From positions 62,001 through 126,000 of the forward strand of contig JADDTR010000006.1 in the NCBI GenBank assembly GCA_015345905.1: a stretch of 64,000 nt of DNA, in the 5' to 3' direction. Of this stretch, positions 1,141 to 31,493 are shown one piece after another; positions within the stretch are counted from its first letter, which is position 1; each line of letters begins with the position of its first letter. Origin of the DNA: Aotearoamyces nothofagi. Taxonomy: Eukaryota > Ascomycota > Leotiomycetes > Leotiales > Tympanidaceae. Position numbers and translations under genes: made by a program. The notes beneath the pieces are model-generated. The model was given only the letters and a program-made list of their open reading frames with translations. It searched no databases and was not told where the DNA came from.

Positions 1141-2295
1141 ATGGCCCTCTCCGCCGTGCTGCCCGCGACCCAGTCGGCGCTCAAGATCACCGGCCCCAAC
1201 ACCATCGCGCTGTGGGCCAGCGCGCCGCTGCCCGAGCTCGAGCCGGGCGAGGTGCTGGTGCGCGTGTCGCACGTCTCCATCAACCCCGTCGACGGCAAGT
1301 CGGCCGACATGTCGCCGTCGGCGGGCGCGACCAGCGGCACCGACTTCGCGGGCAGCGTCGTCGCGCTGGGGCCCGGCGTCGGCGCCGACCCCTTCCGCGC
1401 GACCCGCGGGCTGAGGGCCGTCGCCGTCGGCGACCGCGTGCTGGGCTTCGTCTTCGGGAACGACCCGCAGAGGCGCGACAACGGCGCCTTTGCCCAGTAC
1501 GTGGCCGTGCCGGCGCGCCTGGTCTGGCATGTCCCCGAGGCCATGCCCCTTGCCACGGCCGCGACGCTGCCGCTGGCGATCGCGACCGTCGGCCTGGCGC
1601 TGTTCCACTACCTGCGGCTGCCCATGCCGTCGGGTCCAGGCCGCGAAGAAGCCGCGCCTGCGACCCCTGGCGAAGCGCCCTTCGTGCTGGTGTACGGCGG
1701 CGGCACAGCAACGGGCGCCATGGCGATCCAGATCCTGAAGCAGGCGGGCTTCACGCCCATCACGACCTGCTCGCCCAGCTCGTCGGCGCGCGCCACCGAG
1801 CTGGGTGCGGCGGCCACGTTCGACTACCGCTCGCCGACGTGCGGTGCCGACATCCGCGAGCACACGGCCGACTCGCTGACTCTGGCGCTGGACTGCATCA
1901 CCGACACGGCGTCGATGGGGATCTGCTACGAGGCGCTCGGCTCGGCGGGCGGGCGCTACATGGCGCTGGATTCGTTCCCGGTGCGCGGCCACACGCGTCG
2001 CAGCGTGGTTCCCGACTGGATATGCTCGTATACTCAGTTTGGGCACGCCATCGCCTGGGCACCGCCGTATAACTTAGATGCGCGTCCGGATGATCGAGGG
2101 AGCGCCGAGGCGTGGTACGCGGTCGCGCAGCGGCTGCTAGACGAGGGCCGTATCAAGGCGCATCCGAGCGAGGAGAAGAAAGATGGGCTCGCAGCGGTAG
2201 TAGAGGGAATAGAGGCTGTACGAAGAGGAGAGATCAGAGGGAGGAAGTTGGTCTTTCCGATTTCTGAGGAGCTGTATAATGGTCTAGGTAGATAG
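1141..2295 (+). CDS. Trans-acting enoyl reductase (LovC-type, zinc-independent MDR fold)
   Basis: A single exon of 384 residues, the usual size for this family. The N-terminal GroES-like part has the motifs INPVDGK and GTDFAGSVV. The nucleotide-binding part has VYGGGTATG followed by ATCSPSSS and then ALDCITD, all hallmarks of the stand-alone enoyl reductases LovC, ApdC, TenC and IccB. These NADPH enzymes reduce enoyl intermediates on the carrier domain of a partner PKS whose own ER domain is inactive. The ATG at 1141 is the first in frame after an A-rich leader and gives a good family N-terminus. It lies divergently next to the PKS start at the left edge and next to a Zn2Cys6 regulator, so it is very likely the ER of that megasynthase. 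GC-rich third positions match the other cluster genes. Family assignment is firm; the partner is inferred. Confidence 0.93.
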   Translation: MALSAVLPATQSALKITGPNTIALWASAPLPELEPGEVLVRVSHVSINPVDGKSADMSPSAGATSGTDFAGSVVALGPGVGADPFRATRGLRAVAVGDRVLGFVFGNDPQRRDNGAFAQYVAVPARLVWHVPEAMPLATAATLPLAIATVGLALFHYLRLPMPSGPGREEAAPATPGEAPFVLVYGGGTATGAMAIQILKQAGFTPITTCSPSSSARATELGAAATFDYRSPTCGADIREHTADSLTLALDCITDTASMGICYEALGSAGGRYMALDSFPVRGHTRRSVVPDWICSYTQFGHAIAWAPPYNLDARPDDRGSAEAWYAVAQRLLDEGRIKAHPSEEKKDGLAAVVEGIEAVRRGEIRGRKLVFPISEELYNGLGR

Positions 2296-2525: not shown

Positions 2526-5147
2526 TCAAGCATCCCATCTATTCCGACAAGTACAGCCCGGCTCGTGAAAGGCCTGAGTAAATCCCAAGTCTTGAAAGTC
2601 AAGCTCTCCGTTTCTGTCGCCGCCTATGCTATCCTCGTCACGGCCATCGCTGTGCATCCACATCTGTATGTCCTCCTCGCCTTGTCTATCCAGGCTCTCG
2701 GTCCAGGCCGGCCGCTGCTGGCGTTCTATCACCTTACAGCACAAGGTCAGCGCCGCCCGTGCCGCTTCGGCAATGGCCTCGTCGATGTCGCGCGACGGGC
2801 GCCCACGCTGCATGGCCTCGATGTACGCGCTGGCGCACGTAAAGATGAGGAACTCGCGCGCCGATTGTGTGCCGCCAGCCGCCCGCATGCGGTGCTCGAA
2901 CAGGCCCACGGCGCCCCGCACGACCTCGCTCAGCTGCCGCCACGAGGCGCTGTCCAGCGTCGGGAATGCCTTCTGCTCCAGCTCGCTGATCAGATCCAGG
3001 CACAGCGTCGCCGTAGCCTGTCGCTGCACGAGCGCGAAATGCCCGTTCCCGTGGGTCCGGAGCGCTGCGTACGCATCGCCTATAGCCGTGCTGCCGGAGA
3101 TTGTTTTCAACGTAGATGCGGATGGCATGGTAGTAGTCGCTTGGCCTGCTGTCTCTACAAGGTTAAGACCTGGAGCAGAGTCCTCGGCTGACGTGGGCGC
3201 CGGTAGCAACGGATGTGCCAGGAGCAGCGCCGAGACCTCCATGCGCATCCGGCGTGAATAGTAGTATGCCGGCTTGGCAGTGGCCTGGTCTGCAAATGGC
3301 CCGTGGAGCGCAAGCACGAATGGCCGCGTGAATATATCCAACAGCTTGATCTGGAAGTCGGCCGGCCTGGGATTCCTCATGGAGCGCAGCATATCCGAGT
3401 TTATACAGCAGGCCGCGTTCAGCTCGGCTGCCAGCTGGTGGCTGTCGTCGTAGGCCTTGGACGCACCAGGAGCGTTGACGAGGTGAAGGATCCGGAGTCG
3501 AAGTCGCTGCGTGCGTGCCAGGAGGACAAGCACGGTCGACGGCGTAGAGCCCAGGCGCTCTGGCTGGCCCGGACACAGCGCGATGTCCTCGTCCGAGACA
3601 CAAGACGGTGCCTCGCAGTCATAGCTCTCGGGCGAGAGAGGTGCCGGCAGGCCTTCGTCAAAGCACAGCTGCAGGGACAGCTCAACCATCGTCGCCCACA
3701 GCCGCCGACGGATCTCAGCTTCTAGGGGCGGCATAGCCGGGGAGCAGACCCGCGGCTCGCGGTGCAGGCCCATCTGAATACCGATGCGCGTCAGGTCATG
3801 GTCTCCAGGGAGCCAGCCAGCGCCAGCCGCGGCCGGGCGGCGATGCGTGTGCTGCGCCAGAGCCAGGAGGCACATGATCTGGGCCATGTCCAGGTCGGCA
3901 CGTGAGCCCGCGACCATCCTGCACGTGAGCCACTGCTTGCCATGCGCGATCCAGCCGCAGGCCTGCTCTGAAGCGCCCCGCGCCTGCGCCTGCGCCTGCT
4001 CCTGCTCCGAGTCCACGGGAGGCTGGGTGCTGCGGCACACGCAGGATCCCAGCGCCATGGCGACCAGCAGCTTGCACGCAAACGGCTCGTCCGCGTCCCT
4101 CGACCGCGCCAGGGAGCCTCCCCAGAAGCGCTCGTAGTCGCGCAGGAACGACGGGACGTGGAGGATGCGCAGCACCGACTCGAAGGTGCCGATATACGCA
4201 TCGAGTAGCGCGTCACACGTCGCCCGCCGCGGCAGCAGGTCCCGCGCCGCACACGCCGTCAGGGTCGCCGTCAGGGTCGCCGTCAGGGTCGCCGTCGCCG
4301 GCCAGCCCCAGCCCCACGAGCCGCGCGACGACCTCGCCCTGCTCTCCTGCTCGCGCTGGGCGGCGCAGTCCAGCCGGTTGAAGGCCTCCATCAGCGGCCG
4401 CAGCGCTTCCTGCTCCGGCAGCAGCGGGCCCTCGTCGTCGCCGGCATCGCCAGCAGCGCCAGCAGCGCCGCGGACGAAGAAGCGCAGCCTCGCGCAGCGC
4501 GCCAGCGCGTCGTGCCAGCTGCCCCTATACCCGCCGGCGCCGGGCTCGACGGCCGGCAGCTCGGAGCCTGAGGCCGAACTCCACGACAGCTGCCGCTGGT
4601 CCTGGTCGCCCTGGCTCGGCGTCGGCCCAGCCCGGCTGCTACCTCCGGCCGACGAGCGTCTGCCGCTTGTCCAGGCCGGCGATTCGTCCACGTACGCGCG
4701 CGACGCGTCTGCGAGCGCCGGCTTGGGGTTGGCAGCATAGGCGCCGCCGCCGAAGTAGTCGGCGAAGCTGGCGTCGGCGTCCAGCGCAAAGAGGTCCAGG
4801 TCTGCGACGTTGACGTTGTCGTCGAGGATCTCGGGCCGCAGGACCGACGGGCACTGGCCCAGCTGCCCGAGTGCGCCGTGCTGTATCCGGCAGTCGACGT
4901 GGCCTGGGTTCGGGATGTTGTTGATGTTGTTGATGTTGTTGAGGTTGTTGAGGCTGTTGAGGCTGTTGATATTGCTGATATTGCTGATATTGCTGCTGCT
5001 GCTGTTGTTGTACACGCATCGCAGGCCCTCTGGCGCTCTCCTACACGGCCCGCACGGCGCCGCCCGGTCGCATCGGATCTTCCGCCGCCGACACTCCGTA
5101 CACGCGACTGCCGGCCGGCGGCGCTTATGTGCCGGCCCGGGCTCCAT
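2526..5147 (-). CDS. Zn2Cys6 transcription factor, candidate cluster regulator
   Basis: One exon, 873 residues. A binuclear zinc cluster sits at residues 16-44 with spacing C-x2-C-x6-C-x5-C-x2-C-x8-C (ACTECRRRKIRCDR core), preceded by a basic arm. A Ser/Asn-rich low-complexity stretch encoded by trinucleotide repeats (about 4915-5010) follows. The middle homology region characteristic of fungal-specific transcription factors starts near residue 300, with a segment reading ILHVPSFLRDYERFW. A 12-base repeat around 4257-4300 encodes three to four TATL units just before it. The gene is convergent with the enoyl reductase, their stop codons being 230 bases apart. As the regulator closest to the megasynthase it is the best candidate for pathway-specific control, but this is inference. 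It has no intron, unlike the other two regulators here. Confidence 0.92.
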   Translation of the reverse strand: MEPGPAHKRRRPAVACTECRRRKIRCDRAAPCGPCRRAPEGLRCVYNNSSSSNISNISNINSLNSLNNLNNINNINNIPNPGHVDCRIQHGALGQLGQCPSVLRPEILDDNVNVADLDLFALDADASFADYFGGGAYAANPKPALADASRAYVDESPAWTSGRRSSAGGSSRAGPTPSQGDQDQRQLSWSSASGSELPAVEPGAGGYRGSWHDALARCARLRFFVRGAAGAAGDAGDDEGPLLPEQEALRPLMEAFNRLDCAAQREQESRARSSRGSWGWGWPATATLTATLTATLTACAARDLLPRRATCDALLDAYIGTFESVLRILHVPSFLRDYERFWGGSLARSRDADEPFACKLLVAMALGSCVCRSTQPPVDSEQEQAQAQARGASEQACGWIAHGKQWLTCRMVAGSRADLDMAQIMCLLALAQHTHRRPAAAGAGWLPGDHDLTRIGIQMGLHREPRVCSPAMPPLEAEIRRRLWATMVELSLQLCFDEGLPAPLSPESYDCEAPSCVSDEDIALCPGQPERLGSTPSTVLVLLARTQRLRLRILHLVNAPGASKAYDDSHQLAAELNAACCINSDMLRSMRNPRPADFQIKLLDIFTRPFVLALHGPFADQATAKPAYYYSRRMRMEVSALLLAHPLLPAPTSAEDSAPGLNLVETAGQATTTMPSASTLKTISGSTAIGDAYAALRTHGNGHFALVQRQATATLCLDLISELEQKAFPTLDSASWRQLSEVVRGAVGLFEHRMRAAGGTQSAREFLIFTCASAYIEAMQRGRPSRDIDEAIAEAARAALTLCCKVIERQQRPAWTESLDRQGEEDIQMWMHSDGRDEDSIGGDRNGELDFQDLGFTQAFHEPGCTCRNRWDA

Positions 5148-6584
5148 GCCGCAGCTTCGTCTGATCTTCCCTTGCAGGCTCGCCGTCTCGCAGTCTGGCA
5201 GTCTGGCAGCAGTCGGCGGATCCGAGGATCCAAGAGCCCGCGACTCCCAGAACCCAAGAGGCCCGCGAAGCTTGGATCCGTATATGTATCCGGGTGATGT
5301 CGTGGCGGCTGCCTCTTGGCCGGGCAGGTGGGCGTGCCAGACGTGTCAGACGTGCCAGAAGGCTTGGTCTGCGAGGCAGGCCTTATGTGACACCGAGATG
5401 GGCGGCATCAGACGGTACCACGAAGCGGCCTGCACTCTCACCTCGACGGCAGCAGTGGTGGTTCGCAGCCCAGCAGTCTCGTCTCGCCGACCCGAGAGTC
5501 ATCAGAAAGTCCTCAGAAAGTCTAGCCAGAAAGTCCAGCCAGCTACCTGCTGCCAGCCGCTACATGTTATATATCTACACGCAGATACGCGCACCTCCTG
5601 TCCCGCGGTGCCTGGCCCCGTACCAGCACCGCACTCCGGCCAGTGGCAGCTGCCTCATCCGGCACACTCCCCTGGGGCGAGGCCGGGGCGCCAAGGCTCC
5701 TCGTCTCTCGATTCGCGCTCCCCATCCATCGTCACCGTTGCATCCCATCCGCTTCCAGTCGTCCAGGCGTGGCGGGCTAACTCCTGCTGGATCCGCGGTG
5801 CATGGTCAGCCTCGGGGCGGCCGTGGGGCGCCAGCAGGATCTGGCACACGCATGGGAGCTCTGCCTGTAGCCCGTCCTGGCTGTCTTGCTGGGCTGGGGC
5901 GGCTTACGGCGCGTGGACGGCGTGCAATACCATACCACCTGCCGTTGTCAGTGTGAGATTTGGCAATACCGAGTGCAGGCAATATCGAGGGCAGGTAAGA
6001 GTCGATGCTCTACGCGGATTCGCTGGTGGCAGTAGGGCTTTCTCGCCAACCTTTACGACGTTTGTAAGATGCCTCCAGGAGCCGTCTATGTAGGTCTCAT
6101 CTATCTATCTTGTCCGTGTCCTAGGCAGTGTAGTCGGCCAGTGTATCCAGCATAGGCAGTGTAGCCATCTCACCCATCTCACCCGGCACAGCCAGCACAG
6201 TCCAGTAAACACAGCGCAGAGCAGCCAAGTATAAGCTGACTACGTAGCACGCCGCCGGCCGGCCACCGCCCATTGGCTTTTATAGGAGAGATACTGCCCA
6301 GATGCTAACCACGACATACGACGCTTGTGAAATCTACGAAATCTGCCATCTGCCAGTGACGCCATTTCTGCACTGCTGGAATGGCGTGCAGGTGCAGAGC
6401 AGGTGCAGAGCAGGTGCAGGATACCGGGAGAGGTGAGCCAGCAGATTTCCTACTAATAGTAAGCATTACTACGCTGTACTGCACTGCACTGCACGGTACT
6501 GTACTGCACGGTACTACCCTGCTCTGTACCGCCCTGTACCTCCCTTCCCTGTCCTCGCCGCGCAGAAGAATTTTGCCGATTCTG

Positions 6585-10254: not shown

Positions 10255-10364
10255 TGTTGAAATAGTTGCTTGAATTATTAAAAAGGTTTAAGAGTATAGT
10301 AGTTTCTATTTACTAGCTGGTAATAGTCTCTATTTAGACTATTAAAAAGTTCTAATTTCTAATA
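10255..10364. repeat. Left long terminal repeat of the fossil element
   Basis: A 110-base direct repeat matching 13139-13244 along its whole length, with many transitions and one short length difference. It is preceded by ATTAT. Confidence 0.78.
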
Positions 10365-11344: not shown

Positions 11345-11890
11345 TTTAATTAGACTAGCTAGACTGAACTGTAAATAAATAGTCTAGACTAGACCAAACT
11401 ATAAAAAGCAGTCTGGTCTAGTCTTTAAATATCTTGATTTTTAAATAGTCTATATTATAGTCCTTGAGACCAGACTATAAATAAATAGTCTAGACTAGAC
11501 TGAACTATTTAGAAACGGTCTAGTCCAGTTCTAGAGATCTTAGACTATTTCTTTTCTAAATACTCTAATTACTACTTTTTTTATAATTCTAATATTAAGA
11601 GTATTACTATTGAGTGTTACTGTTCTATATAGACAAAGAAAGTTATAAAATCTTTTTTCTAAAAATAGTTATAAGAGTTCTAAGAATAGCTCTTTATAGT
11701 CTAGACCAGACTATATAGTCCAGTTCAGTCTAGACCAAACTGTTTCTAGAAATGGTCTCTATTTTCTATTTGAGACCAGACTGTTTATTTATAGTCTAGT
11801 CCAGTCTAGACCTAAATGGTCTAGTCTTTGAAACAGTCTATAAATTACTTTTGAGACCAAACTAGACTAGACTATTAAATAGTCTACTTT
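11345..11890. repeat. Cluster of GTCTAGACTAGAC-type inverted repeats inside the fossil element
   Basis: The phrases AGTCTAGACTAGAC, GGTCTAGTC, GAGACCAGACT and their reverse complements recur about a dozen times in 550 bases, in both orientations. The rest of the element does not show this. It may be a second, nested repeat that decayed together with its host, or an expanded palindromic array. Confidence 0.6.
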
Positions 11891-13138
11891 TAATATACTT
11901 CTCTAAACTTTAAAAAGAGATCTAAACTATACTTTAAATTCTTATCTATACTTTGATATATAGAGTAAAATTATATAGAAGGTATATAACCAATATATAT
12001 AATCAATTGAAGCTGTTGCTTCAATCTCCAATTATAATTAATATATATATTTAGTCAAAGCTATAGCTTTGATCTTTGACTATAGTACTACTATAGTAGT
12101 ACTTTGCTTAGAAGAGAGATATTTAGAAATCTTAAGCTTCTAAAGCTTTCTAATTCTTTAAGAATCAGTTTCTATATAGATTAGATAATCCTTAGCTAAT
12201 ATACTCTTATAAAAATCTATAAATCTATAACTTCTCTTATTTTTATTATCTATCTATTTTAGTTTCTTCTTTAAATATTTCTTTTTATAATTCCTTTTAT
12301 AATTTATTTTATTATAGATTTTGAAAACTAGTCTTTTCTTTCTTTTAATATTCTTCTTTTCTCTATTTCTCTATTTTATTCTACTATAGAGAAGAAAATA
12401 TATTTATTTAGTATTATAAATCTTCTTCTCTATCTTAATTCTTTAGACTTCTTTTCTCAATATTGAGATTATTTATTCTTTAATAATACTAAAGAGTTGT
12501 ATTCTAGATTTAAACTAATGATTAAAATCTTAAGTTTACTATATCTAGATCTATTATTAAAACTAGATATATATATTTATCAAAGTTAAATTTAATCTTA
12601 ATAGTATCAATTCTCTTATTGAGGATTTTAATATAAGTAAAATAGTTTTTAATATTTTCAAAGTAGTAAAATACTATAGTAAAAGGTTTTTAAATATTAT
12701 ATATAAATATTATCTCTATAGTTGAAATAAATAGCTTCTGAAGTTTTGATAGTATTAAATAGCTATTATTGAACTTAATATTATTAAGCTTTATTTTGAC
12801 TAAAGTAAAGATTAATATTATAATAATATCTACTACTTCTTTATATTTAAAAGTAATTTTCTTGATTATATCTTCTATAACTAACTTTTATATATATTTC
12901 TATAACTTCTTCTATTTTAAAACTATTTATATATCAATTAGCTAAATATTGAAATTATCTCTAGTAAAATAGAGGATCTATAAAATAATAGACTTTAATA
13001 TATTAGATATAAGGTTGAAAGTAGACTTTTAATTTTCTTTAGAGGTTTTTATACTCTAGAAATAGAAGATAAACTAAGAGCAGTATTGAATTCTAAATCA
13101 GAGATCTAGTAGTTAATTTATAACCTAGGCTTATAACC

Positions 13139-15990: not shown

Positions 15991-17611
15991 ATGATCACCC
16001 TATACAATCTGCCAGTGATCGTTCTCTCCTCCGGCTTCCTGGCCCTCCTGTTGAGCAGAGTCTTCGGCCATGGCAAGCAAGATCGCAGAGCAGCGGCCAA
16101 GGGCTGCCAGTCCGAGGCCCGCTACTGGCAATGGGATCCCATCTTCGGCCTCGACCTTGTATTGAGCCAGGCCAGGGCCCTGAAGCAAAACCGCTACCTC
16201 GACTGGCTCCGGAACTTGCATGCCAACATGCCAAAGACCTTTTCCATCAATTATGTCGGCATACGCTGGATCTACTCGATCGAGCCCGAGATCCTGAAGG
16301 CGGTCTACGCCACCAACTTCAAGGACTTTGGCGTCGAGCCGATCCGCCGTCTCCCGCCCGGCATGATGCCTTTTGCCGACAAGGGCGTCAGTACCACAGA
16401 CGGCGACGACTGGTCCTTCAGCCGCTTCCTCATCAAGCCCTTCTTTGAACGTGACGTGTATAGCAGCACCGACCGCATCACGTCGTTCGCAGACCGTTTC
16501 ATGACACTACTCCCCCAGGACGGCGAGACGTTCGACATACAGCCTCTGATTCAGCGCTGGGTGAGTTGAGTCCGGACCTGTTCGGATCGAGGCTGACCCT
16601 GAGCAACTAGTTCTTCGATCTCAGCGCCGAGTTCATCTTCGGCAAGTCCCCCGACGCCATGCTGTACCCGGAGCGCGCCAAGGTGGCCTGGGACATGACG
16701 GACGTGCTCCGCGGTGCTCGCCAGCGCGCGCAGATGTTCAAGTTCCTCTGGGCCTTCAGCTGGGACTGGTGGTTCAGCGCCGTGTCCGAGGTCCACACCT
16801 TTGTCAATCCGTACATCCGCGCCACGCTCAAGGAGCTCGACGAGCGCGAGCAGCGCATCAGGGACGGCTTGCCGGTTGAGCCCGAACGGACCGACCTCCT
16901 TTGGTCCATGGCTACGCACCTGAGAGACGAAGAGCTGTTGAGGTCGCAGCTTTGTCTGATCATTGTGCCGAATAACGACACCACGTCCATCTTCCTCAGC
17001 AACTGCATCTGGTATCTTGCGCGCAACCCGGATGCCTGGGAGAAGCTGCGCCAGGAGGTCGCGGCTCTTGGAGACACGCCCTTGTCTTTCGAGGTCTTGC
17101 GAAACATGAGGTACCTCAATGGGGTAATGAATGAGAGTCAGTAGCTTCCCTCCCCTGCCCTATCTGGTCCTGCCATACTAACCATAATATCACAGCCCAC
17201 CGCCTCATCCCCAACAACGTCACGCAGATACGAGCCTGTCTCAACGACACCGTCCTGCCTCTGGGTGGCGGCCCCGACGCCCAATCGCCCATGCTGGTGC
17301 ACAAGGGCGACATCGTATCGGTGACCAAGACGGTCATGTACCGCGACCGCGACTACTGGGGCGAGGACGCCGACGAGTACCGGCCCGAGCGCTTCGACGG
17401 CCTCCGCGGCACCTGGCACTTCCTGCCCTACGGCGGCGGGCCGCGCCGCTGCCCCGCCCAGATGATGGTGCAGACCGAGGCCGCGTACATGCTCGCCCGC
17501 CTCGCCAAGATCTACCGCCGCATCGAGGCCCGAGACCCGGCGCCCTACACGGCCGTCATGCGGATCGGCCCGTCCAGCAAGAACGGCGTCAAGATCGCCC
17601 TGTATAGATGA
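15991..17611 (+). CDS. Cytochrome P450, CYP52/CYP539-like
   Basis: Three exons (15991-16560, 16611-17136, 17196-17611) give 503 residues, normal for a microsomal P450. A hydrophobic N-terminal anchor (about residues 4-22) is followed by the P450 fold. The I helix carries NNDTTS with the oxygen-activating threonine, the K helix carries ETHR (ExxR) split by intron 2, then YRPERF, and the heme loop reads [14 protein letters not shown] with the thiolate cysteine. The GGGPRRC form is typical of the CYP52/CYP63/CYP539 alkane and fatty-acid hydroxylase clan. It would oxidise a hydrophobic chain at the ER membrane, plausibly the polyketide tail. It is convergent with the second P450. Its promoter holds a four-copy CGG array. 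Family firm; substrate unknown. Confidence 0.92.
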
Positions 17612-18358: not shown

Positions 18359-20030
18359 TTACAGCCCCTCCTTGCGCCTCTTGACCCTGATCTTTGCCCC
18401 TGGAGGCGGGATGGACAGCTCCGCCACCCACGCATTGGGCGGCTGCTTCCCGCCGTACGCGATGGGGAAGTCGATATCGTAATGCGTCAGCACGTATGCC
18501 ACGACCATCTTGAGCTCGAAATCGACCATGAAGCGGCCGGGGCAGGCGTGCTTGCCGTGTCCGAACGGCAGGTATTGGGGCGACGTGGTCACGAACGTCT
18601 GCGGGGTGGGGCTGGGCGTGGCCTCGTGCTCGCGCGAGTACCGGTACGGGTCGAACTTGAGCGGGTTCACGAATTTCTCGGGGTCGACCTGGGCGGGCGA
18701 GGCGAGGAAGGAGATGACGCTGCCCTTCTGCAGGCTGAGGCCGTCGCGGGTCACGATGCCGTCGCGCATCACTTTGCGCATCGAGCCGCGCGTGCCGAAG
18801 GGGAAGTTGAGACGCATCGTCTCGCGCGCGATGCTGTCCGTCTTGATCATCTGGGCGAACTTGTCCTTGTTCCATTCGGCGCCATCCGTGTCCCCCAAGA
18901 CGTGCGCGACCTCGGCGCGGAGCTGTGAGATGGTGTCGAATTCGGCGTCGGACCCGATGATGTTGAGCACCATGTTGGTCGCGGCGATGGTCGTCTGGTG
19001 CATACTCACGAAGCTCGATGCGCAGACGCGCCGAGCTATGATGTGCAGGTCGTCGAGCTCCTGGGGGCGTTTCTTCTGCGCGAATCGAAGCATCATCTGG
19101 AGCAGGTCCTGCGGCTGAGGCGTGGCCGCATCGTCCTTGTCCTTCAAGATGGCGAGGCGCTCTCGATACAGCGGCTCCAAGAGCGTCTGCACCCTTTCGA
19201 TGTTGCGGTGCGTGTGCCAGCTCGCGAGACGTCCCGTGATGGGCCGTAAGAAGTTTGGGAACGGGACCGTGGCGAAGATCGTGGTCATGACGCCACCGAT
19301 GATCTTATACGTCCGATCCAGATACTCCTCGTCGCGACACAGCGGCAGCCCCACGATGAAGCGGCTCGATGCCTGCGCCACGATCTTGCGCAGCGTAGGC
19401 TCAAGCTCGACCTCCCTCCACGCCTCCGTGTCGGTGCCGAAATGCTTGTCGAAGGCATCGTGCAGCTCGTCGTCCAGCATCGGCACGAGGCTCTGCAGGA
19501 TGGAGTTCAGGTGCATCTTCACCAGGCTGAATTGCCACGGGTCGGCCCAGTAGCGCGAGTGCCCGAGACTGTAGACGGTCTGGTTGAGGTCGAGGAAGGC
19601 CTGCGAGACGCTCAGCGCGTCGTCTGGCTGCGCCATGGCCCAGTCGATCGAGTTCTCGGGCATCACCATGCCGCTGTGGAAGCCGACGCTCGGCACCAGC
19701 ACCGCCTTGCCCTTCTTCGCAAACTATATCACAGGCTCAGCAGGTTTTCTTTCTCTGTCATATATTTGTCTGCTGGATACTTACGTTCTGGTACGCCTCG
19801 TTGAACAGCGCTGCGCAGTCGGTGTAGTATCGCCATCTTGTTCGCAGGCTGAAATATCGCCGCCCCGCTGGCTCTCCTACTAATGGCAGCGTCGGATACG
19901 CCTCGCGGGCGAAGAAGATTTTGTAGACGATGGCGACGAGAGCTGCGATAGCAGCAACCACGGCTATATTATTATAACGCCCGAGATCTGGTATGAAAGT
20001 TCTCAGAGGCGCCATTGCTACGACGTGCAT
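18359..20030 (-). CDS. Cytochrome P450, CYP68/ent-kaurene-oxidase-like; candidate ring-modifying enzyme
   Basis: Two exons (20030-19785, 19723-18359) give 536 residues. A membrane anchor lies at about residues 22-38 after MAPLRTF, and an alternative start is the second Met (20015). The I helix reads FVSMHQTTIAATN, lacking the common AGxxT glycine but with the threonine, as in CYP68/CYP503 and ent-kaurene-oxidase-like fungal P450s. ETMR supplies ExxR, FDPYRYS the meander, and YLPFGHGKHACPGRF the heme loop. This group includes the ring-expansion P450s of tetramate-to-2-pyridone pathways (TenA, ApdE, IccC type) as far as I recall, so with a PKS and trans-ER nearby that role is attractive but unproven. 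It shares a divergent promoter with the OYE-SDR gene. Confidence 0.9.
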
Positions 20031-20853: not shown

Positions 20854-23394
20854 ATGGCCCTGAGCATCGCCCTGCCGCTCACGCTCAAATGCGGCCTCAC
20901 GCTACCCAACCGGCTCACCAAAGCCGCCATGGCGGAGAACTTCGCAGACAAGGAGCACCTCCCGAGCAGTAAGGAATGTCTGGCCGCGTATGCCGAATGG
21001 GCTCGCGGGGGCTGGGGATTGGTAATAACAGGTGAGTCAACGGCTCTGTTTTCATAACTAAAGTTCTCAGCGTCGCATCGGCTTACGTATGGCAGGGAAC
21101 GTGCAGGTCGACCCGGCCTACCTCGGCGGCGCCGGTGATATTGCTGTCGATAATGCCATGCCGAGGCATAAGACGCTCGCGGCCTGGAAGGACTGGGCGG
21201 ATGCGTGCTCGCGGAATGGCACCAAGGCGATCGTACAGATCAACCATCCGGGTCGCCAGGCTCCGTTCACGAGCGGCACGATTGCTCCGAGTCCGGTCCC
21301 GATGGATTTTGGGAAGGGCGTCATGGCGTGGCTCGTCAACTCGTTTGTCTTCCGCATGCCGCGTGAGATGACGGTCGAGGAGATCGAGGATGTCGTCAGA
21401 AAGTTCGTATATGCGGCTTGTCTCGCTGCTGAGGCCGGGTTTGCGGGCGTTGAGATCCATGCTGCGCATGGGTATTTGCTAACGCAGTTCCTGTCTCCCA
21501 AATCAAATGTGCGGACGGATGCATACGGGGGGACGGCTGTGGCGAGGGCTAAGATCGTTGTTGATATCATCCATGCCATCAGGGCTGCTGTGCCGCCTGG
21601 TTTCTGTGTGGGCATCAAGCTCAACTCTGCGGATCATCAGTGCTCGGCTGATATGAGCGAGTGCATCGAGCAGCTGAAGGCTATCACGGATGCCGGTGTT
21701 GATTTTCTGGAGATCAGTGGTGGGAGCTTGGCGGATCCGACGTTCAACACGGGGCCTGCGGGCGAGGAGAAGGCGAGCTCGAGGGCCCGCGAGGCTTTCT
21801 TTCTCGACTTCGCCGCCGCCATCAGGGTTGAATTTCCTCATATCCCTCTCATGGTTACGGGAGGATTCCGCACGCGCAAGGGCATGGAGACGGCGGTGGG
21901 GGAGGGCAGTTGTAACTTCATCGGTCTTGCCCGGTCATCTGTGCTGAATCCGATGCTGCCGCGCGCAATCCTGCTCAATGCAGACATACCAGATGATGAA
22001 GCTGTAGCCTATGCAAAGAAGATCCAAGCGCCGAGCTTCGCTAGGCATACCGGGATCAAGATCATCGGCGTGGGGCCGGAATATGTAAGTTTATGGCGGC
22101 GAGAGTGTGAGCAGAGGGGTGGGTTGCTGATGCTAACTCTGACACGAATCGTGATAGGACTGGTACACCAAGAAGATTCATCGGCTGGGTGCAGTGAAGG
22201 GCTCGATACTGGTCACCGGCTGCAATGGGGCCCTGGGCAGTTCCATCGTCGGCCGCATCCTCAACCAGCCCTACCTGGCCAAGCAATATCACGGCCTCTA
22301 TGCAATACGCAAGCTCGAAAACGCGACAAACGTCCGTAAGGTACTTGGCAAAGCTGAGTCGAGGCAGCACTCAAACGAGATGCTTCCCATCGACCTCGCA
22401 AGTCTTGCCAGCGTGCGCAAGGCCGCCGAGGACATCAACAGGCGCGTTGCATGCGGCTCTCTCGCGCCCATCCAAGCACTGATCTTGAATGCTGGGTGGC
22501 AGGAACAGACAACGCAGACCTTCACCGCGGACGGTTTCGACGAGTCGTTCCAGGCAAACTACCTCGCGCATTTCCTCCTGATCTTGCTGCTGCTACAGAG
22601 CATGGACAGGCAGACCGGACGCATCGTGGTGCTGGGCAGCTGGACGCATGAGTAAGGAGCCCATGTTGAGGTTGTATACGTGGAGCACGAAAGGCTAACA
22701 TAACTACCGCGCAGCACGACACATCCTAATAACAAGCTCGGCGGCTTCACTAATATGTACGAAGCAGAGAAGTATAGCCAGATCTTCTGCGATGCGGACG
22801 ATATAGAGAGTCTGGCGAAGGGGAGGTGGAGTTCCGAGAAAGCGCATCCGGGTGATCTGAACGCCGGCATCAGACGCTACGGCGCAGCCAAGCTGTGCGA
22901 GATCATGATGTTGTAAGTCCTCTCTCTCCCTTACCCTCCCTCCCATCCATATCCACGAAAGCGCCTCACCTTAACCCTCCCTACGCAGCCGCGAGCTCTC
23001 CGCCCGCATCGCCGCCGACCCCTCCCTATCCCACATCGCCGTCCTCGCGCTCGACCCAGCCGCCATGCCAAGCGGCCTCACGCGCCGCGACAGCTGGGTA
23101 CGCAGCGTCCTCATCTCCCATATCCTGCTCCGCATCCTCTCCACTCTCGCCCTGTTCCTGTATCCCAACGGCGCCTTTCGAACGCCCTGGAAATCGGCTG
23201 GGGATGTATTGCGCGCGGCTTTTGATACAAAGGAGCTGGGGGAGTGCCCGAATGGTGTTTATCTAGATGGCGAGAAGAGCGCGGACGTGGGCGAGGAGGC
23301 AAAGGACGTGCGGAAGACGGAGAGGTTGTGGAGGGATAGTTTGGGCTATGCGCAGATTGAGGAGGGAGATACTGTTCTGGCGCATTGGCGATGA
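20854..23394 (+). CDS. Fusion of Old Yellow Enzyme (FMN ene-reductase) and short-chain dehydrogenase
   Basis: Five exons (20854-21031, 21096-22084, 22158-22651, 22715-22912, 22989-23394) keep phase and give 754 residues, about twice either family alone. Residues 1-400 are an OYE TIM barrel of the YqjM/NADH:flavin type: [20 protein letters not shown], and [14 protein letters not shown] with the substrate-binding His pair, ending [10 protein letters not shown]. The next residues enter an SDR Rossmann fold: TGCNGALG (about 409), LNAGW, a GS catalytic serine (about 549) and YGAAK (about 610). No stop, and no ATG that could start a separate SDR, lies between them; intron 2 (22085-22157) joins the OYE tail to the junction exon in phase 0. 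A two-step reduction of C=C and C=O, or OYE-type isomerisation plus ketone reduction, on the pathway intermediate is plausible. It is divergent from the second P450. Two separate transcripts remain possible. Confidence 0.82.
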
Positions 23395-24261: not shown

Positions 24262-25657
24262 TCATACCTTCCCCAGAATACCTTGGGATGTTGTGAGCTT
24301 GGTTAGAAACGCAATGATACCACCAAACATACACATGGCACCGCTGAACATGGATGATTGAAAAAATCCTCCATAGTGGCTGACAAGCACTCCATTCAGC
24401 GGAGGACCTATCAGACCTCCAATAGCGCCAAGAGCCATTCCCATTCCCGCGTATGTGCCCATGTCTCGGGGGTCTCTAACACAGACAGTAAAGGCCACGC
24501 TAGCTCCAGAGATGATGGTCCCCGAAGTAAAACCAAAGACGACCGAATATACGATCAGCGCTGCATTACTTTGTGCCGAGTCCATGCAGAAGATTACGAT
24601 GCCTGTGATGAATCCCCCAGTTGCGTAGGTGTTCAGTTTCCCATATTTATCTGCTAGGATACCCGGAATAATACGGCCAAAGGTAGAGGCCCCGTTAAGG
24701 ATCGCAGACAAGTAGCCCGCAAGTGTTGGATCCATGCCTCTTGTGTTCGCGTATGTCGGGAGGAAGAAGAGTGGCGTGAACATGCCCATGAACGTAAAGA
24801 ACATCGAGACGGACAGGCCGATAAGTGTTGTATCTTTGAAGGCTGCTGGGATCCAGAAGGAGGTTGTTCTCGACGGCAGACGAGCCTTGACTGTCACGAG
24901 CGCGAAAGCTATAAAAGGCATGATAATAAATCCAATGACTCGCACTGACCACCCAAAGCCCAGAGAAGAGCTGTTCAACATCTTCGACACTGCTATAGGG
25001 ATGATGATGCCACCGATGGATGATCCAGATACAGCCACTCCAATAGCAGCTCCTCGATTCTTGTCAAAATACTGCGACACTGCGGCAATTGCCGGGAACT
25101 GGAGGAGGCCCATAACTATGCCCATCAGAATGCCTTGCACGAGCATGATTTGCCAGTATGTTCTACACAGGCTCAGCATCATCATGGCAAAGACATAGAT
25201 GACCGCGGATGGCCGGATGACCTGCCACTACGTTAGTACACTGGCTCAACCGTCAAAGGGGAATAGATGTACATGCCTTTGAGCCAAAGCGATCAAACAA
25301 TGGCCCTCCGACCATGCCTGATGCAAATTGTAGGAAAGCCGACAGAGATCCAATCCAAGCAATGTTATTTGGTGATTCCCCGCGGAGCTGATTTGTCAAA
25401 TAGAATTCTGTAAAAGTGCCAAAGGAGTTGGCGAAGCCCAGACAGCAGAAGAATAGGCAGGAGCCCCCCGCCGCAACTAGCCATGCTTCACGGCCTCCAT
25501 CTGGCGCTGGCCCAAAATCGAGATTGCCGGGCTGTGTTTTCTCTCGACTGAGTTCGGCGGCGGTGGTTGAGTTCTGTCCCTCACCTTCGACGGTGATGAT
25601 TGGATTCTGTTCTTCGCCCTCGCTCGGAGCTCTATGCTCTGTTCCGGTAGTCGCCAT
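24262..25657 (-). CDS. MFS transporter, monocarboxylate-porter (MCT/MCH) family
   Basis: Two exons (25657-25277, 25221-24262) give 446 residues. A charged N-terminal tail of about 50 residues precedes PDGGREAWLVAAGGSCLFF, the opening of the first transmembrane helix in fungal MCT proteins. DRFGSK then follows between TM2 and TM3, and about twelve hydrophobic segments can be counted. The intron is best read as a rare GC-AG intron: the donor is AAG|GCATGT, and only this choice joins DRFGSK to VIRPSAVIYVF in frame as the family requires. Members move monocarboxylates, riboflavin or unknown metabolites across the plasma membrane. It sits between the reductase fusion and a regulator, with a 391-base promoter shared with the latter, so a role in product or precursor transport is plausible. 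Confidence 0.88.
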
Positions 25658-26048
25658 GTTGCAATAAGAGGTATGCAATTGCTGATTATTGTAATTGCAG
25701 ATTATTGAAACGACAGGTGAGATTCGCTTTATGACGGAACGATTTACATCAAGAGTGAGAAGAAATAAAAGTCGAAATTCATTATATATTGTTGTACTCT
25801 CGGAGATAACAATACACGGGTTGCGGGCACGGACTCGGTGGTCGGACTCGGCAAATTCCAATAGCGGATAGCGCAGATGCCGACCCCGACTATTTCTCGG
25901 ATCAGATAAGACAACGGTCGGTCGGAGATGCAACGACAGGTCTCAGATATATTGTCCGCCCACTTGTACATGACAGTTCGGACGGCCCAAGTGTGAACCA
26001 TAAGGGACATAAGGGAGATAAGAGACATAAGAGACACAAGAGACAGCC
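25658..26048. promoter_or_regulatory. Divergent promoter of MCT transporter and second Zn2Cys6 regulator
   Basis: A 391-base gap between divergent start codons with several CGG/CCG triplets (for example around 25828-25850 and 25914-25922). A near-perfect hexamer-like stretch of AGAGACATAAG/AGGGACATAAG units lies at 26000-26045. Confidence 0.5.
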
Positions 26049-28507
26049 ATGGCCGAGCCCGAACGTCGGCGCCGAAGGCCACCTGTGTAGGTTGGATTGC
26101 CCTGTCTGTCGGTGCTTGGCGCTGAAAATAGAGGAATATAGTTCGTGCTCTCTCTGCAGGAGACGTAAGATCCGATGCGATCGAGGAAGTCCCTGTAACA
26201 ACTGCCTACGGTCTAGAAACGGGATTTGTGTCTATGGAAATGACTTTTCTCAATCATCCCCGCGGCAACATCTTGGCCAGGGCCAAACAGCTGGATTTAG
26301 CCTAACCCAAAGGTCCCAAGAGTCAACACCTGTGGACAGAGCTTCTAGTATAAGTAGAGGCTCGACAGTGTCAAGTCATCCGTCAAGCTCATTTGTGACT
26401 AGTTCAACAAACGCATCGACTCCTACGAGTCAACCGTCTGCTCAGGATATCGAGTCTATGAAGAGCAGAATTAGGCAACTTGAAGAGCAGCTGTCCAAGT
26501 CGACTCTAAGGTCGATCCAGTCTCCTGCATCGACTCCAGATTCTAATATAGAGACAACACCGCCGAATATAGGTGGAAGTTTCTACTTTCATGGTGAAAG
26601 CCGCTTGTTCGGCCAACCTCATGTCCTCGACCGCAGTGTGATGCATAAGACCCGTCTGTTTGGCCAAAGCCATTGGATCAATGGAGTTGCACTGGTAAGT
26701 TCTTGGGCTATCCATTGGCCTTTCGTTGGAAAAGTAGGTAGCTTAACAACCATTAGTTGCGGGACATGATGGAGATAATGGAGCCGTATGTGCAAGAGAC
26801 ATCAAAGGCTATTTCTGGCGTTCTAAGGTGTAAGGCTTTGGCAAGAGTCATCAAATCGCAACGGGCACCTCTGTGGCCCACAGCACCAACAGCCGATTTA
26901 CCTCCAAAAGCTGTGGCAGATGAGCTCGTCGACTGTTACCTTCGGACTACAGAGACCGTCTATCGAATTCTGCATGTTCCTACCTTCAGAAGGGAATATG
27001 AGGCTCTCTGGGTATCTAATACCACTCCCAGTACGGCATTTCTGGTGCAATTGAAGCTAGTGCTCGCCATCGGAGCTACCATATACGATGAGAATTTCTC
27101 CCTACGTACCTCGGCTGTTCAATGGGTGTATGAGGCTCAAACTTGGCTTTCAGAGCCGGAATTTAAGTCACGACTACAGATTCAATCTCTGCAGACTAAT
27201 CTCCTACTTTTGCTGGCTCGAGAAACAGTAGGTATGGGCGGAGACCTTATCTGGATCTCAGCCGGCACACTATTCAGAATAGCAGTCTCTATGGGGTTGC
27301 ATCGAGATCCAGCGCGTCTGCCAAAGAGGACAACTTTCGCTGCCGAGATGCGCCGAAGACTATGGAATACAGTTCTAGAGATTACTCTGCAATCGAGTGT
27401 GACCTCGGGTGGGCCTCCCCTCGTTTCCCTGGACGACTTTGATACTGAGCCGCCCGGAAATTTCGATGACGACCAGCTTGTGGCTGAGGATCCGGTGCCG
27501 AAGCCGGAAGACTCCTTCACTCAAATGTCCATCGCAATAGCTCTCCGTAAGTCGTTTCCACTCCGTCTTGCAGTCACCAAATTTTTAAACGATCTCGGCT
27601 CCCACGGTACATACGAAGAAACGCTTCGACTTGATGCAGAGCTAAGGGCGTCATACAAAGCGATATGTCGAACCCTTCAAGGATGCACTTCTAGCACTGG
27701 ACCTTCACCCTCCCGGTTTGAAATACGCGTAGTTGATTTCCTCATGCATCGCTACCTCTCGTGCCTTCACATTCCTTTTTTCGGCCCGGCATTGCAAGAG
27801 ACAGCCTATGCATTTTCTAGAAAGGTGGTGATCGAGACTTCGCTCAAGATTTGGTGTGCAGCGCACCCTTCCTCATCTGTCATGGCTGTTCAGTCCCGAA
27901 GTGATACGGCTTCATCAGATCCAGATGACTTGGCGAGACTCATAGTCTGCGGCTCTGGATTCTTTCGCACCATTTCTTTCCAGGCTACCTTGCTCATAGC
28001 AGTGGAGCTTAGAACGCAACTTCAAGAGGAAGAAAGTCTAGGCCCCATACCTTTACGACCAGATTTACTTTCTGTATTAGAAGAATCAAAAACTTGGTGC
28101 TTGCGGTCTATCGAGGCTGGAGAGACCAACGTCAAGGGCTACTTGCTCATGTGTTTAGTTGCTGCACAGGTTGATGGGCTTATGCGAGGCGTTAGAAATG
28201 ACGAGGTTCCGGAATTGTTAGTTAAAGCTGCAGAAGACGCCGAAGAAAGATGCTTGCCGATACTTGAAGAGATGGCAGCGCAGGGCCAGGCCGACGGAGC
28301 TGTAGATGAACTTAACCAAATGTCTTCAAACACGCCGCCTGAGGTAATGGAAGACTGGGACTTTATGGTAAGTAATGAGTCTCCATCAAGAGCTTACCCA
28401 TCACTTACAATTTATATTAGATGTCAGATGCCCTGTTAAATTTCAGCAATGCGGAGCCAATGAGCTGGGTGTTTAATGATGAAATTACGCAAATGCCATC
28501 GTTTTAG
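26049..28507 (+). CDS. Zn2Cys6 transcription factor with fungal-specific regulatory domain
   Basis: Four exons (26049-26086, 26142-26694, 26757-28367, 28421-28507) give 762 residues. The first exon encodes only MAEPERRRRRPP plus two bases; splicing creates the basic arm directly before the zinc cluster (C15-x2-C18-x6-C25-x5-C31-x2-C34-x7-C42). A Ser/Thr-rich linker and a short coiled coil (RIRQLEEQLSK) follow, then the middle homology region with YRILHVPTFRREYEALW. The last exon supplies a 28-residue tail that ends in an acidic, hydrophobic stretch and could be an activation segment. It is divergent from the MCT transporter and may control it. Its lower GC and different codon use from the 2526-5147 regulator suggest a separate history. 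Confidence 0.9.
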
Positions 28508-29628
28508 CGACGATGAACTGCGGACCTGACCTGAATCCGAACAGATTTTAGCAGGCCGTGAAAGGGAAATTGTTTCATTAGAACCGCCACTCTATACAGC
28601 TAAGTGGCGATTATACTCAAGCGTATATCAGAGACCTTGACTGGGAGTAATCCATTAGCGTCTAGCAGGCATGATCTTGACCAGAACTTTAGATAGCCAG
28701 GAAGCTAGCTTTACAGCATGAGATAAGATATGAGCAATCATTTGGGTGCCAAGCCTTTTAACTATACAAAGCAATTGAGTACCATCCCGAACTGCCCTAG
28801 CCTTTATCTAGTAGTCAGGATACCAATCATCTACTGTGAAGACATCCCTGCTACGTCTTCTACCTTCTATCAACAATAAGTCCTCTATTTACCCGTCAAA
28901 TCATATCCCTATGATCTGACCTCCTACAACCACCCGCTCCATCGAACGCATCTACAAACAAGCGACACGCGTCTTACTTTATATGCATAGTCCATAACCC
29001 ATGCTTCTGAACCTCGATTCCCCTGCGCGCAATACGGAGCTTACTACATGTCAAATGCAGCTTCTCCTTATCAGTCCCTCTGCGGAACGAGTGTCTATTT
29101 GGGGTTCTGGATCGGGAGTGTCTTGTTGTCTGTGGTGTGGTGTCGTGTTAGGCTAGAGGTGCGGGATATGCAGCTTATGTTTCTTTTTTTTTTGCTTTTT
29201 TTATGGCGGGCTGGAATATTGGGATGGGTGAGAGGATGGGAGAGGGGATGAGGGGATGTCTAATGAGGCGAGGGTTGGATAGGGAGAAGGAAGGGTGGTT
29301 AGGGTAGGATGTATGGTAAGCATAACGAAAACGAAAGCCGAGATATGATCGGGTACATCATGCAGTTAAGGATACCAATAAATTTTGCAATGATAACTTT
29401 TGTATTGTTTAGATTTGAAGATGGCAAGTCTCTGTAGCAATTTCTCTTTAATATCAGCTTCTCTGAACTTTCTTCCTAACCTCCAACTAGAAGCTCCAAA
29501 AACTATCAGATGAGGACAGCGACTTCGCTTTTGACAGGTCTTTTCGTAGAGGGATTTAATTTCTTTACTGATAATAGTAAATGGTCTAGCGAGGACTTCG
29601 TTAATTTGTAGGACAGCATACGTGTTCA
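28508..29628. other. Intergenic region between convergent genes
   Basis: About 1.1 kb. A frame at 29366-29629 (87 codons, minus strand) abuts the next gene's stop but shows no family motif, so I do not call it. T-rich runs near 29185-29205. Nothing else was seen. Confidence 0.55.
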
Positions 29629-31481
29629 TTACATGGGGTCGAATTCGGTCGACGTGGAGACGCCTTGAGGGATGGGAATTGTATCGAGATATATAGGATC
29701 ATCGGACGGATCATCCCAGCCTTCTCTCTCGTCCTTCACCATTCTTACGAAGAACGCATCCAGGACGACAGCTATCATGGCAATGCCAGCACCGAAGTAC
29801 AGGGCGGCTCTGAAGCCAAGGACTTGATCGAGCTTGTCCTTATATACCTCGGTTTCTATTGTTCCGGCAAATCCCAGCCCGAGACTGGTGCCGTAGAGGT
29901 TGAGGGTGCCGATGAGGGAGGCGGCGACGCCCTGCTGGCTGCGCTTGACGCTGTTGCTTGCAACGATCTGAGCCGCGACGTAGACGAAGTCGGGACAGAA
30001 AGACATGAAGATCGTGGCTGGGAAGACTTGCGCCCAGTATGTCTGCTGCACTGGCATCGTAGCCAGGAGGATATTGGCGATGAAAATCGTCGCGGATCCA
30101 ATGGCCAGTATCCATTGTGAGGCAATGCGTGGGATCAGCCACGCGGCAATGAAGGTGCCGATGGTTGCAAAGATCCCAAAGGGCGTCCACTCAACTGCAA
30201 ATTGGAGGACGCTCTGACCGCGCAGGATCTGTAGCCAAGAGACCATGTACCAAAGGAAGATGCCATTGGACATGAAGCTTAGGAGGACGACAAAGTTCAA
30301 AGGGATAAAGGACGGCGCAGTCCATATATCGAGTGGCATAATTGGTGTCTTGGTGAACTTCTGTTCCCAGACGCCAAACAGCACAATGACGACGATAGAG
30401 ATGGCAAGTATGGCAATTACGAATGGAGTATTCCATCCACTTGCAGGAGCTTGGCTGGAGAAAATTAGCACGAGTGCTCGAAACTCGAGGGCAATTGTCT
30501 TACTTCCAAGCAACATTAAAAAGAATCAAACCGCCTGTTCCCAACGCTGCACCGATCCAATCAATCTTACCATTTCTATCAATAGGATAGTCATAAGGAA
30601 GGAGAAGTCTTAGAATACCAAAGACACAGGCTCCAAAAATTGCCCTGGAAATGTTAGCCCATGGCAAGCATAGACGGGAGATGTCTCTCTCACAAACTAA
30701 AAAATATCCAGTTCCAATTAGCAAACTGCATCAAGATACCGGCCCAGATGGCCCCTAGGTAGCCTCCTATTGGTGCAGAGGCCCCAAAGAAACCCAATGT
30801 GATATTTCGCGTCTTTCCTGGAGGGATAGTCGTACTTATCAGCGCTACAGCATTGGGCATGATCAAAGCACCTCCTATACCAGAGAAAGCTCGCGCCACG
30901 TTGAAGGAGACAAAACTCCTGCAGAAGCCGGTTACTACGGACCATATAACTAGCCATACAGCGCCGACAACCAAAACATTGCGGTGGCCGTATACAGCAC
31001 CAACCCGGCCACTTATCAAGACGAATGTTCCCTGAGTTAGCCTGCGGTGGGAATAAAAGTCAGTGTGATCTCATAGAGGAGGTGGACTGTCGCTAGGAGG
31101 ACGTACGGGTATGAAGCCGCTGCCCAGTTTGCTTGACCTGGACCTACAGCAACCCCTAATGATTTGCTAATTTCAAGGCCTGCAGCGAGGCCAACCATAT
31201 TGGATATCATCTGGATCTCGTAAGAGCAGAGCCAAAAAAAAATTCCGGCAACAAAGACTGACCTGCACCATGTTGCTAGATACAATAAAGACTATGATAG
31301 CCAGCCTGCGCCATTTCCCGATCACATTTGCCGGGACTACTTCAAAGGTATGTCGATTATGCGTAGGAGAGCCATCTGTTATCCCTTCAAGTCCGCCCGG
31401 ATGCTCCCGGGGCGATGCGGATGACGGATCCTGGCCAGAGATTGTCGATTCATGGGTCTGGAGTTCTTCTACTTGAGACAT
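29629..31481 (-). CDS. MFS drug:H+ antiporter, DHA2 (14-helix) type
   Basis: Five exons (31481-31263, 31210-31107, 31041-30694, 30644-30504, 30454-29629) give 545 residues. Phase-correct joins restore family segments: QANWAAASYPLTQGTFVLISGRVGA across intron 2, WIFFSLAIFGACVFG across intron 3 and FNVAWNQAPASGW across intron 4. The LTQGTF...GRVGAVYGH stretch is the TM2-TM3 signature of the aminotriazole-resistance/Atr1-like DHA2 transporters. About fourteen hydrophobic segments follow a 60-residue polar N-terminus. An upstream ATG at 31493 adds four residues and is an alternative start. Such proteins export toxic or self-made compounds from the cell, and in a biosynthetic cluster this is commonly the self-protection pump. 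Membership of this cluster is inferred from position. Confidence 0.9.
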
Positions 31482-31493
31482 GGTCAAATACAC

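What the first reader, a model, noticed from the sequence alone, without database searches (positions are those of the whole stretch)
20854..23394. Old Yellow Enzyme fused to a short-chain dehydrogenase in one reading frame
A full OYE barrel ends in its usual WYxxxxxRL tail and the SDR Rossmann motif starts about 10 residues later, with no stop and no start codon between. Both active sites look complete (HAAH; TG-x3-GALG, S, YGAAK). I do not recall this fusion from described clusters. A bifunctional enzyme could reduce or isomerise a C=C bond and reduce a ketone in one step, and would replace two genes of 2-pyridone-type pathways in which a stand-alone SDR reduces a ketone before dehydration and cyclisation.
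Basis: partly seen in the sequence, partly recalled or inferred. Interest (0 to 1): 0.75.

Follow-up and report, generated by a model that had tools for sequence, protein, structure and literature searches.

The report
Two-in-one reductase in fungal pyridone cluster
A fungal gene beside a polyketide-peptide synthase makes one protein with two joined reductases, a flavin enzyme for double bonds and a second enzyme for ketones, which probably work in turn on the same ring; relatives in other fungi have kept or worn down the second half.

Summary
Window 20854-23394 (+) is a five-exon gene for a 754-residue protein: an Old Yellow Enzyme (OYE) barrel followed directly by a short-chain dehydrogenase (SDR). 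The joint lies inside one open exon, without stop or usable start. Catalytic residues of both halves are present; one glycine of the SDR cofactor motif is alanine.

It is not unique. Of the 120 homologues listed (of 2469), 16 carry both halves in this order: 5 with SDR Tyr and Lys intact, 11 with a degraded SDR half, among them a protein deposited as ApiH. The 15 fused OYEs put in a tree fall in one clade (100/100) with a Fusarium group, probably OsdN, which a review says makes two consecutive reductions after a P450 oxidises the phenol in oxysporidinone biosynthesis.

Best reading, inferred: the OYE half saturates the dearomatised tyrosine ring of a 2-pyridone and the SDR half reduces the remaining ketone. 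Between intact fusions both halves are equally conserved (59.3% and 59.1%); between degraded ones the SDR half has diverged (66.2% and 43.0%).

Novelty: new variant of a known kind. No transcript, activity or product was tested.

The parts
20854..23394 (+). whole OYE-SDR fusion gene, 754 aa, stop codon included
   Evidence: spliced translation without internal stop
20854..21031 (+). exon 1 (start of OYE barrel)
21096..22084 (+). exon 2 (most of the OYE barrel; H181, H184, Y186)
22085..22157 (+). intron 2, one residue before the WY of the OYE tail; GTAAGT..GCTAAC..TAG; database models of two fused relatives (P0013, P0014) and six Fusarium OYEs diverge at the same residue
22158..22651 (+). exon 3: OYE tail and SDR Rossmann start in one open exon (the junction)
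22715..22912 (+). exon 4: SDR, YxxxK (Y609, K613)
22989..23394 (+). exon 5: SDR C-terminus with hydrophobic stretch aa 659-677
18359..20015 (-). P450B, 531 aa, two exons; sister to a group of five that holds the protein labelled fumoB
15991..17611 (+). P450A, 503 aa, three exons; role not assigned
1141..2295 (+). trans-acting enoyl reductase-like protein (ADH_N, ADH_zinc_N), 384 aa
1..97 (-). first codons of a PKS-NRPS whose open frames run to C6:49858, about 12 kb to the left of the window
2526..5345 (-). Zn2Cys6 transcription factor (open frame)
24262..25227 (-). MFS transporter (open frame), next gene to the right

Best explanation
A real, single-polypeptide OYE-SDR of a PKS-NRPS (probably 4-hydroxy-2-pyridone) cluster. 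Shown by sequence: the fusion, its conserved junction, the catalytic residues of both halves, and equal conservation of both halves among intact relatives. Inferred: after a cluster P450 has dearomatised the tyrosine-derived phenol to a dienone, the FMN of the OYE half reduces ring C=C bonds, and the NAD(P)H-dependent SDR half reduces the remaining ring ketone to an alcohol, giving a hydroxylated cyclohexyl substituent. A hydrophobic C-terminal stretch, also present in stand-alone SDR relatives, may hold the enzyme at a membrane beside the P450s. The fusion probably arose once, by joining an SDR gene to the last exon of an OYE gene; in at least one lineage the SDR half then lost its catalytic Tyr, and it may have been deleted in others.
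For: Gene model and junction within one exon. Both Pfam domains. 16 of 120 listed homologues have both halves in order. OYE tree of 61 rows: the 15 fused rows plus 11 rows without an SDR match in one clade at 100/100, the 35 other rows outside it. The clade includes six Fusarium proteins 61-64% identical; five of the six carry a FAD oxidoreductase domain (PF01266) from what looks like a merged neighbour, as the osd gene list has OsdN and the FAD enzyme OsdO; OsdN is said to make two consecutive reductions after the P450 OsdM oxidises the phenol (PMC10967133 passages; OsdM and OsdN in dearomatisation also in PMC10381429 passages). SDR tree of 90 rows: 16 fused rows plus one stand-alone protein separated from 73 other stand-alone SDRs, SH-aLRT 96. 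Halves equally conserved among 5 intact proteins: 59.3% and 59.1%, 10 pairs. Cluster context: PKS-NRPS, trans-ER-like protein, two P450s. Adjacent locus tags for a fusion and a P450B relative in Monosporascus MG133 (DL767_010588, DL767_010589). Model of the 63% relative P0001: pLDDT 85.8, pTM 0.77, OYE tail helix 380-399 and first Rossmann strand 402-406.
Against: No transcript, activity or product data. The SDR glycine motif has Ala414 for the middle Gly. P450B is sister to a fumoB-holding group (SH-aLRT 100) and TenB is an N-hydroxylase (PMC8669486 passages); P450A was not compared with TenA or OsdM, so no phenol-oxidising P450 is demonstrated. Tyrosine as the loaded amino acid was not tested. 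That the Fusarium group is OsdN is inferred from its neighbour, not from the OsdN sequence. ApiH, if it belongs to the apiosporamide cluster, has no SDR Tyr although apiosporamide has an oxygenated cyclohexane ring (PMC5983305 passages), so another enzyme can do that step. P0001 has Thr for N523. The intact rows do not form one supported clade in either tree.
Confidence: 0.47

Rival explanations
1. Fused and bifunctional, but the SDR half reduces a ketone on the polyketide side while the OYE half acts elsewhere.
For: The cluster is PKS-NRPS with a trans-ER-like protein; the SDR half has general relatives such as an iccH-labelled protein at 48%. Stand-alone SDRs for polyketide-side reduction are recalled from other 2-pyridone pathways, not looked up.
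Against: The two halves meet within two residues in the P0001 model, which suggests a shared substrate; the OYE half groups with probable OsdN, reported to act after phenol oxidation.
Confidence: 0.2
2. The SDR half is mainly structural or a membrane anchor, and only the OYE half is catalytic.
For: 11 of the 16 fused relatives have a degraded SDR half that stays in frame: the Tyr is missing in 10 of 11 and the eleventh, P0013, ends before it. The hydrophobic stretch survives in the longer ones. The ApiH model keeps Rossmann-like strands. The window itself has Ala414 for a motif Gly.
Against: N523, S550, Y609 and K613 are all present in the window, and among intact proteins the SDR half is as conserved as the OYE half.
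Confidence: 0.18
3. The OYE half works as an isomerase or desaturase rather than an ene-reductase, with the SDR half trapping the product.
For: Other functions of OYE-family enzymes in fungal pathways are recalled, not looked up.
Against: All three OYE catalytic positions are conserved; nothing here favours isomerisation.
Confidence: 0.1
4. Two separate genes or a gene-model artefact.
For: Merged neighbours are seen among database models of this family, e.g. OYE with FAD oxidoreductase in Fusarium and OYE with P450 in P0073.
Against: In the window the junction is inside one open exon without stop or usable ATG, and the same junction occurs in four named genera with intact and three with degraded SDR halves.
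Confidence: 0.03

Closest known systems
OsdN, flavin oxidoreductase/NADH oxidase of the oxysporidinone cluster, Fusarium oxysporum (PMC10967133, passages)
   Same: OYE-type; PKS-NRPS 2-pyridone cluster; the probable OsdN group lies in the same 100/100 clade as the window OYE half
   Different: Described as a flavin oxidoreductase only. Oxysporidinone keeps a ring ketone, which I infer from its dimethyl ketal (PMC10381429 passages; PMC13431433 passages). The true C-terminus of the Fusarium proteins could not be read because the models run on into other sequence
ApiH, Apiospora montagnei (P0007; name from the database record)
   Same: Same two halves in the same order, same junction, 46% identical
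   Different: SDR half has no counterpart of N523, S550, Y609 or K613 and no Pfam SDR match; it keeps the glycine pattern GxxxGxG but has Leu for T409
iccG (OYE) and iccH (SDR), labels of database records P0043 and P0201
   Same: Relatives of each half, 54% and 48% identical
   Different: Separate proteins; P0043 falls outside the fusion clade
Old Yellow Enzyme6, PDB 7fev (I take it to be ArOYE6 of PMC4002455, passages)
   Same: Closest solved structure of the OYE half (1.2e-53; top Foldseek match for the P0001 model)
   Different: No SDR half
2,4-dienoyl-CoA reductase, histamine and trimethylamine dehydrogenases
   Same: Foldseek matches longer than the barrel; that they join an OYE barrel to nucleotide-binding domains is recalled
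   Different: No CxxC motif in the window protein, and its second half matches SDR families

Membership tests
Old Yellow Enzyme (PF00724) | Pfam domain over its curated cut-off | tested here: met
   158 bits against a cut-off of 27, aa 8-351
Old Yellow Enzyme (PF00724) | catalytic His pair and Tyr | tested here: met
   H181, H184, Y186
Old Yellow Enzyme (PF00724) | binds FMN, NAD(P)H-dependent ene reduction | not testable with these tools
   needs protein
Classical SDR (PF00106) | Pfam domain over its curated cut-off | tested here: met
   47.1 bits against 26.6, aa 406-552
Classical SDR (PF00106) | Asn-Ser-Tyr-Lys | tested here: met
   N523, S550, Y609, K613 by alignment position
Classical SDR (PF00106) | strict TGxxxGxG | tested here: inconclusive
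   TGCNGALG: T409, G410, G416 present, middle Gly is Ala414; P0001 has Ser there, P0002-P0004 and P0014 have Gly
OsdN-type ring reductase | same clade as the Fusarium proteins | tested here: met
   100/100 clade of 26 rows
OsdN-type ring reductase | Fusarium group is OsdN itself | tested here: inconclusive
   inferred from the adjoining FAD oxidoreductase sequence and the osd gene list
OsdN-type ring reductase | phenol-oxidising TenA-like P450 in the cluster | tested here: inconclusive
   two P450s; P450B is fumoB-like, P450A not assigned
2,4-dienoyl-CoA reductase / TMADH type | cysteine motif for a 4Fe-4S cluster (feature recalled) | tested here: not met
   no CxxC in the protein
Leporin-type ketoreductase step | SDR half groups with the leporin SDR | not tested
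   no such sequence was fetched

The most novel reading that the evidence does not exclude
One polypeptide turns a dearomatised phenol into a saturated cyclohexanol in two steps without releasing the ketone, and the state of its SDR half (intact, degraded, absent) across fungi sets, together with other reductases, whether a 2-pyridone carries a cyclohexanol or a cyclohexanone ring. The degraded half would be an unrecognised pseudoenzyme domain.
Probability: 0.33. Interest if true: 0.7.

Novelty: new variant of a known kind. Interest (0 to 1): 0.55.

Why it matters
If true, it would be a natural ene-reductase/ketoreductase fusion for ring saturation, of interest for biocatalysis, and a sequence feature that helps predict the ring oxidation state of a 2-pyridone from its gene cluster. 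It also shows an SDR half that Pfam misses in six of six degraded relatives scanned, so such clusters may be misannotated.

Tried and rejected
Gene-model artefact: rejected because the junction lies inside one open exon and recurs across genera. 2,4-dienoyl-CoA reductase/TMADH type: rejected for lack of a cysteine motif. A further domain-bearing gene between 5401 and 15200: six-frame Pfam scan gave 0 families at E 0.01. Second copies in the genome: PF00724 gave 8 matches on several contigs; elsewhere P450A reaches 43% and P450B 30% identity at most; a second OYE-SDR was not searched for with the full protein. Foldseek listed only OYE-barrel proteins among the best 50 for both models, so the SDR fold rests on Pfam and on sequence matches to protochlorophyllide reductases (best 3e-11). 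P450B rows known to sit with an OYE of the clade do not form one clade (7 changes, shuffled mean 7.4, 34 hand-picked of 120 listed P450s plus the window). The adenylation-domain code was not read. The fungus was not identified.

Literature: ten searches, of which I saw the listings; none of the listed titles and abstract starts describes an OYE-SDR fusion. For 'ApiH' 20 of 136 papers were listed, all unrelated. Only open-licence papers are held. Passages only were seen of PMC7421883, PMC13431433, PMC10967133, PMC6412548, PMC6631495, PMC11895301, PMC8705728, PMC13043937, PMC5983305, PMC4002455, PMC8954901, PMC8669486 and PMC10381429; no paper was read whole. The primary oxysporidinone and ilicicolin papers are not held, so OsdN is cited from a review. 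Three ilicicolin papers gave no passage on an SDR or flavin reductase for the terms asked.

Rows dropped or partial: only the best 120 of 2469 homologues are listed, and proteins under about 415 aa could not be candidates, so many stand-alone OYEs are missing. The OYE tree took ids up to P0060 plus P0093, without P0014 and P0070 (too short). The SDR tree used 74 of the 120 listed stand-alone SDRs (of 232 found) and left out P0070; three degraded rows fill under half of its columns. The halves comparison used 5 intact (P0014 left out) and 6 of 11 degraded proteins (P0007 near-duplicate; P0010, P0013, P0020, P0070 partial), of which P0009 and P0093 are themselves incomplete models. Against 'the degraded half is invisible': P0009 still gives a weak NCBIfam protochlorophyllide reductase match, 1.8e-4. 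The aligned Ser is kept in 6 of 11 degraded rows.

Full report
What is there. The window lies on contig C6 (bases 62001-126000) of an unnamed 25.5 Mb genome with introns and fungal-type regulators. The gene at 20854-23394 has five exons and codes for 754 residues. Pfam finds an OYE domain at 8-351 and an SDR domain at 406-552. Intron 2 ends one residue before the WY of the OYE tail. The next exon, in a 165-codon open frame, holds the rest of the OYE tail and the SDR Rossmann motif, with no in-frame ATG between them. OYE H181, H184 and Y186 and SDR N523, S550, Y609 and K613 are present; the SDR glycine motif is TGCNGALG, with Ala414 where four of five intact relatives have Gly.

Neighbours. A PKS-NRPS on the minus strand starts near window position 97 and its open frames run to C6:49858; in the parts scanned Pfam finds KS, AT, methyltransferase, KR, carrier, condensation, adenylation and terminal reductase-type domains (about 2.3 kb between C6:57678 and 60001 was not scanned). 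A trans-ER-like protein, a Zn2Cys6 regulator, two P450s and an MFS transporter follow. GC content is 0.62 in 1-10 kb, 0.56 in 13-23.4 kb and 0.49 in 30-64 kb, which suggests a cluster edge near 23.4 kb.

Relatives. Of the 120 homologues listed (2469 found), 16 have a C-terminal part that aligns to the window's SDR half. Five keep Tyr and Lys of the SDR: Arthroderma uncinatum, Monosporascus sp. MG133, Sarocladium implicatum, Akanthomyces lecanii (whose model lacks the Ser segment) and one metagenome fragment. Eleven, from Aspergillus, Apiospora (with ApiH) and Colletotrichum, are degraded: the Tyr is missing in ten and the eleventh, P0013, ends before it; the aligned Ser is kept in six. Pfam finds no SDR in the six degraded proteins scanned, though one gives a weak NCBIfam match. 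In the 22 OYE rows whose motifs were printed, besides the window, the second catalytic His is replaced only in P0093, by Asn.

History. In the OYE tree of 61 rows the 15 fused rows sit in one clade of 26 (100/100). The clade also holds 11 rows without an SDR match: six Fusarium proteins and five from Monosporascus, Bipolaris, Ophiobolus, Alternaria and Microdochium; the other 35 rows are outside. Intact fusions occur on both sides of the deepest split, but that split is weak (92/30), so one fusion followed by decay is the simplest reading, not a proof. In the SDR tree 16 fused rows and one stand-alone SDR from Cadophora gregata are separated from 73 others (SH-aLRT 96), and nine of ten degraded rows form a clade (95). 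The Cadophora SDR has its own start, and its locus tag is four from a relative of P450B (ONS95_011584, ONS95_011580), which fits a pre-fusion or split arrangement; its OYE was not seen. Database models of two fused relatives and six Fusarium proteins diverge at the position of intron 2, so the SDR was probably joined to the last exon of the OYE gene.

Constraint. Among five intact proteins (10 pairs) the OYE halves average 59.3% and the SDR halves 59.1% identity. Among six degraded ones (15 pairs) the figures are 66.2% and 43.0%, with the SDR half lower in 15 of 15. So the window's SDR half belongs to the set under ordinary constraint.

Structure. The P0001 model has pLDDT 85.8 and pTM 0.77; the OYE tail helix runs to residue 399 and the first Rossmann strand starts at 402. 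The ApiH model (pLDDT 78.7) still shows alternating strands and helices in the second half; its alignment contained intact relatives, which may guide the model. The most hydrophobic 19-residue stretch of the second half lies near the C-terminus in the window (659-677) and in nine of the ten fused relatives scored (in P0007 it lies elsewhere). The four stand-alone SDRs scored also have it, and three OYEs of the clade without an SDR match, P0011, P0017 and P0019, end in a hydrophobic stretch.

Function. A review says that in oxysporidinone biosynthesis OsdM, a TenA-like P450, oxidises the phenol ring and OsdN makes two consecutive reductions (PMC10967133, passages). The Fusarium proteins in the clade are probably OsdN. 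From this I infer that the window's OYE half saturates a dearomatised tyrosine ring and its SDR half reduces the ketone left behind. An oxygenated cyclohexane ring on a 2-pyridone is described for apiosporamide and its analogues (PMC5983305, passages) and, from recall only, for militarinone A. What is missing is a demonstrated phenol-oxidising P450, the NRPS substrate, and any activity data.

Known or new. Each half belongs to a known family, and the fusion already exists in generically named database records and in ApiH. In the listings of ten searches of an open-licence library I saw no description of it. I call it a new variant of a known kind.

Noticed in passing
window 10001-13000: AT-rich island (GC 0.18-0.24) inside a GC-rich cluster region.
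   Followed up: partly
L017:7106-8680 (C6:47106-48680, +): Open frame of 525 aa that looks like a siderophore-type MFS transporter beside the PKS-NRPS; label by eye only, from the translation.
   Followed up: no
P0021, P0022, P0023, P0025, P0026, P0073, P0244: Database records that look like merged neighbouring genes: OYE with FAD oxidoreductase, OYE with P450, ADH with P450.
   Followed up: partly
P0011, P0017, P0019: OYEs of the fusion clade that end in a hydrophobic stretch after the tail, possibly a remnant of the fused C-terminus.
   Followed up: partly
window 24262-37579: Block to the right with two MFS open frames, two regulators and an aldo/keto reductase at background GC, probably outside the cluster.
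   Followed up: no
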